In this document: piece after piece, positions 1-1,927 of the stretch
How the letters are laid out: every line of letters begins with the position of its first letter
How positions within the stretch are numbered: position 1 is the stretch's first letter
Made by a program: the position numbers and the translations under genes
Origin: Cocleimonas flava
GTDB lineage: Bacteria > Pseudomonadota > Gammaproteobacteria > Thiotrichales > Thiotrichaceae
Assembly: GCF_004339015.1 (NCBI RefSeq)
Contig: NZ_SMFQ01000005.1
Span: forward strand, 1 to 64,000
Length of the DNA stretch: 64,000 nt
Direction: 5' to 3'
The notes under the pieces: model-generated
The model's input: only the letters and a program-made list of their open reading frames with translations
Told to the model about the DNA's origin: nothing
The model's database searches: none

Positions 1-127
1 TTAACGCTTCTTTGATACCTTTAGTATTGTTTTCGACGTTAAAGAATTCTCCTATTGGACGAACAAATATATCCAATTGAGTTTTGCTGGTATCGGTTCC
101 TACATTGATTTCTTCTACTGTTTTCAT
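1..127 (-). CDS. IS110-family transposase, N-terminal fragment
   Basis: The first 42 codons of a DEDD-type recombinase run off the left edge of the window. The start reads MKTVEEINVGTDTSKTQLDI; the G-T-D-T-S-K-x-x-L-D pattern is the first acidic motif of the RuvC-like DEDD domain of IS110-family transposases. A GGAG lies about 11 bases before the ATG. IS110 enzymes move the element by RNA-guided recombination, using a bridge RNA encoded in the non-coding end next to the gene; the structured region at 153-316 lies where that RNA would be. Only the N-terminus is visible, so integrity and IS110 versus IS1111 subgroup cannot be decided. Confidence 0.85.
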   Translation of the reverse strand, partial: MKTVEEINVGTDTSKTQLDIFVRPIGEFFNVENNTKGIKEAL

Positions 128-152
128 GATAAGATGGACTCCGACTTGCTAT

Positions 153-316
153 ACGGGTTCTGAGACCCTGATGACTGTTCGAGTTATTATCTATAGAGTT
201 ATGTAGTGCTCACACTTGTTATCGGTATCTCTTGAAAAAGAGTAAGCCGTTGCTACATCGAGCTACTACATAATGGCCTTTAGCAGCTAACTAAAGGTGG
301 GTCTCAGTTTACCCGT
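153..316 (-). ncRNA. candidate IS110 bridge RNA
   Basis: This is the non-coding segment directly upstream of the transposase start, and it folds as nested stems. Outer stem: 153-168 pairs with 299-316 (ACGGGT with ACCCGT, TGAGACCC with GGGTCTCA). Arm 1: TTATGTAGTGCTC at about 198-210 pairs with GAGCTACTACATAA at 260-273 with one bulge, and carries a CTCTT-GAAA-AAGAG hairpin inside. Arm 2: CCTTTAG at about 278-284 pairs perfectly with CTAAAGG. Length (about 164 nt), position and the two-arm architecture match IS110 bridge RNAs. Strand is inferred from the transposase. Transcription and the guide loops are not shown by sequence alone. Confidence 0.6.
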
Positions 317-332
317 TCTTTAACTTTAGTAA

Positions 333-395
333 CCATACAAGTTGCTTAAGGCAGGGAACGCCAAAAGCAGGCGTCCCCTTAGCAAGGCGTTAGGC
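333..395 (+). other. integron attC site 1
   Basis: The site ends in GGCGTTAGGC (core GTTAGGC at 389-395). It folds as attC sites do: TTGCTTAAGG (342-351) pairs with CCTTAGCAA (377-385) with one bulge, and GGGAACGCC (354-362) pairs with GGCGTCCC (370-377). The 5' core is degenerate (ATACAAG rather than xxTAACAAG), and the IS110 left end lies within about 16 bases of it. The insertion may have disturbed this core. Confidence 0.75.
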
Positions 396-407
396 TAATA
401 AGAACTT

Positions 408-788
408 ATGATTTTATTTGACGAAAGCACAATCGATACACTGAATAGTTATTTCTCCAAAAAAGAAGAAACTGTATCTTCAGTTACTTTGATGTCCTGT
501 GGATTCTCAATTAATTTTATTTCTTTCCAAATAACATGTTATGAAAAGAGTGTTTTAACCTCATCTAATAAAAGTCATATATGGGATGGAGATAATCCTA
601 ATAAAGGACCTTGGGGTTCATTAGTGCGTCAACTTGCTGTTAATGCATATCTAAAAAGTTCTAAAATACTTTGTATCCAATTTGAAAGTGGTGATTATTT
701 GGATATTGAAACTACTGAAGGACAATATGAGTCTGTAATTATTGAATATCCTCCTGAAGGTGAAAATTTAGTTATGGATATTTATTAA
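408..788 (+). CDS. integron cassette protein, unknown function (126 aa)
   Basis: The gene fills the cassette between attC 1 and attC 2, on the same strand as the attC sites, as cassette genes do. The ATG lies 13 bases after the attC core. There is no clear Shine-Dalgarno sequence, which is common in cassettes. The product is soluble, with no signal peptide or membrane segment. It has a W-x-G-D motif near residue 59, a central helix (residues 68-80) and alternating beta strands with acidic residues at the end. I do not recognise the family. Base composition is more AT-rich than the core genes. Confidence 0.75.
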   Translation: MILFDESTIDTLNSYFSKKEETVSSVTLMSCGFSINFISFQITCYEKSVLTSSNKSHIWDGDNPNKGPWGSLVRQLAVNAYLKSSKILCIQFESGDYLDIETTEGQYESVIIEYPPEGENLVMDIY

Positions 789-795
789 TGAATAA

Positions 796-867
796 GCCTA
801 ACAAGTTACATCATCGGAAAATCAACTCGCTCGCGCTCGTCGTTTTCCGCTGTGTAAGGCGTTATGT
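796..867 (+). other. integron attC site 2
   Basis: It starts with GCCTAAC (796-802), the exact complement of the core GTTAGGC of attC 1, and ends with GTTATGT (861-867). A CGGAAAA / TTTTCCG stem encloses a loop rich in CGCTCG, with AAGTTACA / TGTGTAAGGCGTT at the base. This complementarity between one site's left core and the previous site's right core is the signature of a cassette boundary. Confidence 0.88.
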
Positions 868-882
868 TCTAAAACAAAATTG

Positions 883-909
883 AAAAAGTGCCTAAAAGTA
901 CGGGGGTGT
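883..909 (-). repeat. C6-T7 dispersed repeat, copy 1 (degenerate)
   Basis: Read on the minus strand: ACACCCCCGTACTTT, then TAGGCAC, then five T. It lies just inside cassette 2, between attC 2 and the cassette gene. The C-run is one base off consensus. Confidence 0.7.
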
Positions 910-952
910 GTTTTACAATTAATAAGAAAAGATCTTGCAAGTGGGGCTACTT

Positions 953-1237
953 ATGAAATGGGCAAAACGATTTGGCTTAGTTCTAATTATTTCAGTAATA
1001 GGTTATTTTCTCTTTTTACATGCTGGAATGAGTAGTGATCAAGACACAGTTTTAAAGTGGTACTACAAGCTAGAAATGATAATTGCAGGTATTTTTTGGT
1101 GGCCTGCCTATATTTATTTAGAGCTTAGAGAATTGCTTGGATACAAAACCAATATTCTAGGTTTTGAACTTTGGGTGTTTCAGCTTTTAGGGTACGCAGC
1201 AGTCTTTAAAATTTATGATTTATTTAAAAAAACATAA
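953..1237 (+). CDS. cassette-encoded small membrane protein (94 aa)
   Basis: Gene of the second complete cassette, between attC 2 and attC 3; its TAA stop lies inside the left core of attC 3. I chose the ATG at 953; a TTG 18 bases upstream is in frame, but neither start has a strong ribosome binding site. The product has a hydrophobic helix near residues 6-25, two further hydrophobic stretches (about 40-58 and 72-88), and ends in basic residues. It is probably an inner-membrane protein with two or three helices. No family recognised. Confidence 0.65.
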   Translation: MKWAKRFGLVLIISVIGYFLFLHAGMSSDQDTVLKWYYKLEMIIAGIFWWPAYIYLELRELLGYKTNILGFELWVFQLLGYAAVFKIYDLFKKT

Positions 1238-1316
1238 CAAGGCAATTAAACAATCGCACAACAAAAACACGTTGTGCTGGACTCGCTAACGCTCGCCGTT
1301 TATTGCGGCGTTATAT
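1232..1316 (+). other. integron attC site 3
   Basis: Left core ACATAAC (1232-1238) is complementary to the right core GTTATGT of attC 2. The right core is GTTATAT (1310-1316). Inside, GGCAATTAAAC pairs with GTTTATTGC, and GCACAAC pairs with GTTGTGC around AAAAACAC. The stop codon of the cassette 2 gene lies in the left core. Confidence 0.88.
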
Positions 1317-1326
1317 GTAAATACAC

Positions 1327-1743
1327 ATGAAACTCGAATATATAAATACAAATGACTTTGAATTAAATTGGAGATGGACACAAAAGAGCCATTGTCTAAT
1401 TCCCGAAGAAGATCTAATCAAAATAAAGCCGTTATCTGAAGCATGTTCAGAAAGTATTTATAAACAAACACCAGTGATTTCTGGCGTATCACAAGAAATT
1501 GATTGCAAAGAAACACCAATACTTTTCCTTACAAAGAATCTAGGAAAAGAAACGGTTTATGTTTCTTGGTCTAAAAACATTGCAGTACAAACAGATACTT
1601 TAACTTTAATAAAATATTTCAGTGACTTTTGTTACCCTTCTAGCGATGATGTAACTATTTGGCCTGTAAATAACTCTTGGTTATTGCAGTATAATCACTA
1701 TGAAACTATCACGTTTACTAAGCTAAACAATGAAATCATATAA
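1327..1743 (+). CDS. integron cassette protein, unknown function (138 aa)
   Basis: Third cassette gene, with its ATG 10 bases after the attC 3 core. The product is soluble, with no signal peptide. The N-terminal region, with an I-P-E-E-D-L-I-K-I-K-P-L stretch at about residues 25-36, reminds me of the DUF2947 family, but I cannot confirm that. The C-terminal half is predicted beta-rich with several Trp and Tyr residues. The stop codon overlaps a half attC (ATATAAC). AT-rich like the other cassette genes. Confidence 0.7.
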   Translation: MKLEYINTNDFELNWRWTQKSHCLIPEEDLIKIKPLSEACSESIYKQTPVISGVSQEIDCKETPILFLTKNLGKETVYVSWSKNIAVQTDTLTLIKYFSDFCYPSSDDVTIWPVNNSWLLQYNHYETITFTKLNNEII

Positions 1744-1750
1744 CAAGTGA
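1738..1750 (+). other. half attC site at the end of the cassette array
   Basis: ATATAACAAG is complementary to the right core of attC 3 (GTTATAT), so it is the left core of the site that should close cassette 3. No partner core ending GGCGTT is visible downstream. A 9-base inverted repeat (ACCTTTTAG at 1767-1775 and CTAAAAGGT at 1825-1833) lies in the following spacer and may be part of a decayed site. Confidence 0.55.
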
Positions 1751-1927
1751 CTGTGGTTTCAAGTCAACCTTTTAGGTATTTTTGAAATAAACATTACTGC
1801 GTTTATTTTAGGGTTCTAAACACACTAAAAGGTGAAAACTTTGATTAGTGATATACTAGATCTAATCGCCATTTTCGGTCTTTAAAACTCTTGGGATAGA
1901 TTGAATATCAACTTTAATAGCAGTGTA

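What the first reader, a model, noticed from the sequence alone, without database searches (positions are those of the whole stretch)
153..316. Candidate IS110 bridge RNA
The 150-200 bases upstream of an IS110-family start fold into an outer stem (153-168/299-316) holding two arms (198-273 with an inner hairpin, and CCTTTAG/CTAAAGG at about 278-295). IS110 elements are known to encode a bridge RNA in the non-coding end next to the recombinase gene, with two loops that name donor and target DNA. The fit in place and size is good; the loops have not been matched to a target.
Basis: partly seen in the sequence, partly recalled or inferred. Interest (0 to 1): 0.72.

Follow-up and report, generated by a model that had tools for sequence, protein, structure and literature searches.

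The report
IS110 guide RNA aimed at integrons
The folded stretch is the guide-RNA gene of a jumping DNA element that appears to use base-pairing to insert itself into the recombination sites (attC) of bacterial gene-collecting arrays (integrons), one of a large family in marine bacteria whose guide letters change together with the DNA they sit in.

Summary
Confirmed and extended. The hairpin block (window 153-316) is real (fold z about -5). It is a bridge RNA (seekRNA) gene, but on the minus strand, in the sense of the IS110 recombinase whose first 42 codons end the contig. A covariance model built only from relatives finds it at E=8e-22, minus strand. In 60 sequences 13 of 36 pairs show compensatory changes. 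The loops match DNA: the 5' target guide (GATGTAGCAAC) agrees with the left flank (..AAGCAAC), and over 64 elements guide and flank covary (0 of 5000 permutations; z 9.6 within subgroups). The 3' guide matches CTTGTTA on the right. The donor guide reads ACAGTCA, unlike relatives' ATAGTC; the missing right end, found on another contig, reads CCACAGTCA. The element lies in an integron attC site, and most relatives (Vibrio, Shewanella, Alteromonadales, others) end at (C/T)TTGTTA, many in recognisable attC sites. Published attC-targeting relatives are IS1111-type with the RNA gene downstream; this clade is IS110-type with the RNA upstream, and I found no description of it in the open literature searched. 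RNA expression and transposition are not shown. Verdict: genuine bridge RNA gene of a new attC-targeting variant of a known kind.

The parts
1..127 (-). 5' end (codons 1-42) of the IS110-type DEDD recombinase gene; the rest is cut by the contig end, and its C-terminal part lies at the end of contig C2 of the same genome
   Evidence: 59% identity to a relative's recombinase over residues 7-43
153..316 (-). bridge RNA (seekRNA) core: closing stem 153-158/311-316 and 160-168/299-307
277..297 (-). 5' hairpin of the RNA (277-284/290-297)
   Evidence: four pairs with compensatory changes in this helix
199..273 (-). target-binding arm (outer stem about 199-211/259-273, inner hairpin about 224-249)
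   Evidence: seven pairs with compensatory changes in the outer stem
249..259 (-). left target guide GATGTAGCAAC (same sense as the left flank)
214..223 (-). right target guide GATAACAAGT (complement of ACTTGTTATC)
172..178 (-). left donor guide ACAGTCA, identical to the element's right end CCACAGTCA
189..197 (-). probable right donor guide (TCTATAGAT), partial match to the LE tip TGTATGG; weak
   Evidence: reading; not tested statistically
128..337 (-). left end (LE) of the insertion sequence, tip TATGG at 333-337
   Evidence: same tip next to TTG in relatives
338..395 (+). attC site of an integron cassette, interrupted by the element; shared TTG/CTTG at 338-341
   Evidence: R' GTTAGGC at 389-395 and L''/L' arms; uninterrupted attC sites with the same start in the same genome
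1741..1778 (-). relic of the right end of a second copy in another attC

Best explanation
An IS110-type insertion sequence has jumped into an integron attC site. Its left non-coding end encodes, in the sense of the recombinase, a bridge RNA of about 165 nt: a closing stem, a 5' hairpin, a target-binding arm and a donor-binding loop. The target loop carries two guides that together read GATGTAGCAA + CTTGTTATC, the R''/L'' border of attC sites, one guide for each strand. The donor loop reads the element's own right end (ACAGTCA). The recombinase-RNA complex would join the circular form (RE-core-LE) to attC at a shared CT(TG) core. Shown here: structure, covariation, guide-target and guide-donor agreement, attC location. 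Inferred: transcription, RNA binding by the recombinase, circle formation, strand exchange.
For: Fold z about -5. Model built without the window: E 7.8e-22, minus strand. Compensatory changes in 13 of 36 pairs. Guide against left flank: 6.63 of 10 against 5.02 and 5.20 in permutations, 0 of 5000. Donor guide against RE exact in 69 of 72, and the window's unusual ACAGTCA was confirmed by the RE found afterwards on contig C2. Recombinase matches IS621 and ISCro4, solved bridge recombinases, at E 9e-31 and 2e-29, and NCBIfam 'IS110 family RNA-guided transposase' above its cut-off, both measured on full-length relatives. RE-LE junction forms a sigma-70-like promoter in most relatives.
Against: No RNA data. 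The window's own gene is incomplete and its C-terminal piece shifts frame near the contig end, so this copy may be inactive or misassembled. The window flank also fits some other elements' guides equally well (7 of 10). The right donor guide match is weak. The two contig ends may come from two copies.
Confidence: 0.93

Rival explanations
1. It belongs to the IS1111-attC group, the published attC-targeting insertion sequences, rather than to the IS110 type.
For: Same kind of target, attC (PMC11187229, PMC11616780).
Against: RNA gene is upstream of the recombinase in all full-length relatives read; bottom-strand guide precedes top-strand guide, the order reported for the IS110 member ISEc21 and opposite to that of IS1111 members (PMC11187229); inverted subterminal repeat only 5 bp (TATGG/CCATA) against 7-17 bp (PMC11208160).
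Confidence: 0.05
2. The stems are only DNA-level structure (palindromes used as recombinase sites or a transcription terminator), not a guide RNA.
For: Palindromic stems fold on both strands.
Against: Unpaired loop letters, not only stems, covary with flanks and right end.
Confidence: 0.03
3. The element in this genome is a dead relic whose RNA no longer works, although the family's RNA does.
For: Frame shift in the C-terminal piece near the contig end; other traces in this genome are only scars and relics.
Against: The RNA scores 93 bits with nearly all pairs kept, and its guides agree with its own right end and flanks; contig ends are error-prone.
Confidence: 0.35

Closest known systems
IS621 bridge RNA and recombinase (IS110 group; Durrant 2024, PMC11208160)
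   Same: RNA gene in the left end upstream of the recombinase; hairpin, target loop and donor loop; left guide in the sense of the left flank, right guide complementary to the right; related recombinase (E 9e-31)
   Different: About 27-30% recombinase identity; targets integron attC; longer guide agreement; 5-bp inverted tips
ISEc21 seekRNA (IS110 family; Siddiquee 2024, PMC11187229)
   Same: Upstream non-coding region, same guide order (bottom-strand match first)
   Different: Different target (a stretch within IS3-family transposase genes), larger recombinase (358 aa against about 318)
IS1111-attC group (ISKpn4, ISPst6, ISPa21, ISPa25)
   Same: attC of integron cassettes as target, RNA-guided
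   Different: RNA gene downstream, reversed guide order, longer subterminal repeats (from the papers; not re-measured here)
ISEc32
   Same: Closest named recombinase met here, about 40% identity
   Different: The covariance model finds no relative of this RNA beside it

Membership tests
IS110-type insertion sequence | DEDD recombinase with Transposase_20 domain | tested here: met
   for two full-length relatives; window and C2 pieces align to them
IS110-type insertion sequence | long non-coding region upstream of the recombinase | tested here: met
IS110-type insertion sequence | short inverted tips rather than 7-17 bp subterminal repeats | tested here: met
   TATGG/CCATA, 5 bp; in the window element TATGG/CCACA
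Bridge RNA / seekRNA | conserved structure with compensatory changes | tested here: met
Bridge RNA / seekRNA | target loop matches both strands of the insertion site | tested here: met
Bridge RNA / seekRNA | donor loop matches the element's own ends | tested here: inconclusive
   left donor guide met; right donor guide only a partial match
Bridge RNA / seekRNA | transcribed and bound by the recombinase | not testable with these tools
   no RNA data
IS1111-attC group | non-coding region downstream of the recombinase | tested here: not met
   stop codon to RE end is only about 40 bases in relatives
IS1111-attC group | inserts in attC | tested here: met
   this is convergence of target, not membership

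The most novel reading that the evidence does not exclude
A gammaproteobacterial clade of IS110-type elements has, separately from the IS1111-attC group, made the attC sites of integrons its home. Its bridge-RNA guides are re-aimed naturally between attC types, and copies sometimes leave by an imprecise excision at an internal CT, which leaves a recurrent 8-bp scar in the attC.
Probability: 0.5. Interest if true: 0.65.

Novelty: new variant of a known kind. Interest (0 to 1): 0.52.

Why it matters
It gives dozens of natural guide-target pairs for bridge recombinases with a conserved right half and a variable left half of the target: a ready data set for pairing rules and mismatch tolerance. 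One genome (G412) carries five copies; the two left flanks read there differ although the guide regions are nearly the same. It suggests that two branches of the IS110/IS1111 families met on the same kind of target, integron attC sites, with opposite RNA-gene positions, and it shows one way in which cassette recombination sites in marine integrons become interrupted.

Tried and rejected
Rfam: no family. Pfam DEDD_Tnp_IS110 in the own genome: no hit, because the gene is split over two contig ends. Same-genus genomes: no other copy. I first thought that the left end stopped at 306, because an attC at G000:C2:904429 looks like the empty site of 307-347; rejected, since relatives share the TTG|TATGG tip and that locus is better read as a scar. 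Test whether guides fit neighbouring attC sites of the same host better than those of other hosts: no effect overall (4.79 against 4.78), although the window's guide fits its own host's attC sites better than any other guide does (6.1 against a mean of 4.5). ISEc32-type neighbours carry no recognisable relative of this RNA. ISEc11 and ISEc21 records are not in the collections, so no tree against curated IS1111 members was made. Supplementary tables of the bridge RNA papers could not be read.

Full report
Observation. The window is the start of contig C4 of its assembly. The first 127 bases, read on the minus strand, are the first 42 codons of an IS110-type recombinase. Because the recombinase is on the minus strand, the RNA should be read there as well; palindromic stems look alike on both strands, but the loops do not.

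Relatives. blastn found the same block beside IS110 recombinases on marine plasmids, and a scan of one genome per species gave 80 loci in Vibrio, Photobacterium, Shewanella, Alteromonas, Pseudoalteromonas, Colwellia, Psychromonas, Marinobacter and others. Nearly all those with an intact left end have the same plan, in the sense of the recombinase: attC flank - TTG|TATGG - variable spacer - CGGGT..GAGACCC - hairpin - target arm - donor loop - GGGTCTC..ACCCG - recombinase - CCATAGTC(N)(C/T)TTG|TTA. A covariance model from 27 relatives, without the window, finds the window block at E=7.8e-22, on the minus strand only. Searched in 369 genomes sampled from the class, it finds 9 carriers, one with five copies; in several of the new loci whose left flanks I read, attC-like sequence (TAACGCC) stands beside the element.

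Structure. In 60 aligned sequences 97.6% of pair cells are standard pairs, 13 of 36 pairs show changes on both sides, and 138 cells do so against 35 in column shuffles and 8-19 in slid structures. The sequences are related, so shuffle counts are not probabilities; the slid controls keep relatedness but favour a structure derived from the same alignment.

Guides and target. The 5' half of the target loop was compared with the left flank in two fixed registers. Over 64 distinct elements the mean is 6.63 of 10 matches; guides dealt out at random give 5.02, dealt out within the three RE types 5.20 (z 9.6), 0 of 5000 in both cases. Clear single cases: guide ATTAATTTTT with flank CTTAATTTTT (Alteromonas gracilis), AACATTGCT with AACATTGCT (L065), TATCCTTA with TATCCTTA (L072), TTCATGGC with TTCATGAC at a site that does not look like attC on its right side (L067), CTAACAGC with CTAACAGC (L013). 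For the window: guide GATGTAGCAAC, flank CCTTAAGCAAC. The 3' half reads GATAACAAG, complement of CTTGTTATC. Elements whose right junction reads TTTGTTA carry GATAACAAAC, and L069, with TTCGTTA, carries GATAACGAAC.

Donor. The donor loop holds ATAGTC plus a letter that equals the letter after CATAGTC in the right end; four elements with CATACTCG carry ATACTCG. Over 72 elements 69 are exact, 0 of 5000 permutations. The groups are partly clades, so the permutation alone is not decisive, but the window gives an independent test. Its donor guide reads ACAGTCA, a form seen in none of the others of that table, and its right end was not known when the guide was read. Searching the genome with a relative's recombinase then found the other end of the gene at the end of contig C2, followed by TTGACTTGGAACCACAGTCACTTGTTAGC: the expected letters are there. 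The right donor guide matches the LE tip only in part and was not tested.

Site. Right flanks read TTGTTA in 69 of 75 elements; left flanks hold an AACGYC motif within 150 bases in 37 of 69, against 11% of random stretches, as expected for attC read backwards. In the window the attC occupies about 338-395. In the elements read, the recombinase gene runs against the direction of attC. The joined ends would form a TTGAC(G/A)-17-GATAAT promoter in most relatives, as described for circular intermediates of IS110 and IS1111 elements (PMC11187229).

How it most likely works. Circular element, recombinase and bridge RNA; the target loop pairs with both strands of the R''/L'' border of attC; the donor loop pairs at least with the right end; strand exchange at a shared CT(TG). 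Structure and pairing agreement are shown; transcription, binding and exchange are inferred from IS621 (PMC11208160) and ISEc21 (PMC11187229). The exact core dinucleotide is inferred, not shown.

Known or new. Bridge RNAs are known, and attC-targeting by IS1111 members with downstream RNA genes is known. The present clade has the upstream gene and the IS110 guide order. A survey of Shewanella integrons noted IS110 elements in cassette arrays but reported no insertion sequence interrupting attC (PMC9229058). Open literature searches found no description of such a clade. Subscription papers, ISfinder and the supplements of the two 2024 papers were not available, so priority is not established.

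Limits. The copy in this genome is split by an assembly gap, and its C-terminal piece shifts frame near the contig end; whether it is active is open. The two pieces may come from two copies. No experiment shows the RNA.

Noticed in passing
G000:C2:958254-958272 (L097 about 4271, minus strand) and G011:C2:205763-205780 (L122): Two attC sites with different flanks, in two genomes of the genus, hold the same 8-bp insert TATGGTTA (the LE tip of this element) followed by CTTGTTA: a likely excision scar whose break lies at an LE-internal CT.
   Followed up: partly
G000:C2:904429-904470 (L004 6424-6470): attC with about 31 bp of the LE tip and then CTTGTTAG: a second, longer scar that also breaks at an LE-internal CT.
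   Followed up: partly
window 1741-1778: Right-end relic of another copy in an attC at the edge of the cassette array.
   Followed up: partly
window 338-1860: Integron gene cassettes with attC sites and small unknown ORFs (408-788, 935-1237, 1327-1743); the array probably continues from the end of contig C2.
   Followed up: no
L133, L136, L138, L139, L140 (genome G412): Five copies of one distant member in one genome; in the two left flanks read (L133, L140) the attC sequences differ while the guide regions are nearly the same.
   Followed up: no
L067 (Enterovibrio sp. ZSDZ42): A copy whose right flank is TTGCATGG, not TTGTTA; its left guide is changed and matches its left flank (TTCATGGC with TTCATGAC), its right guide is not: possible half-finished retargeting.
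   Followed up: no
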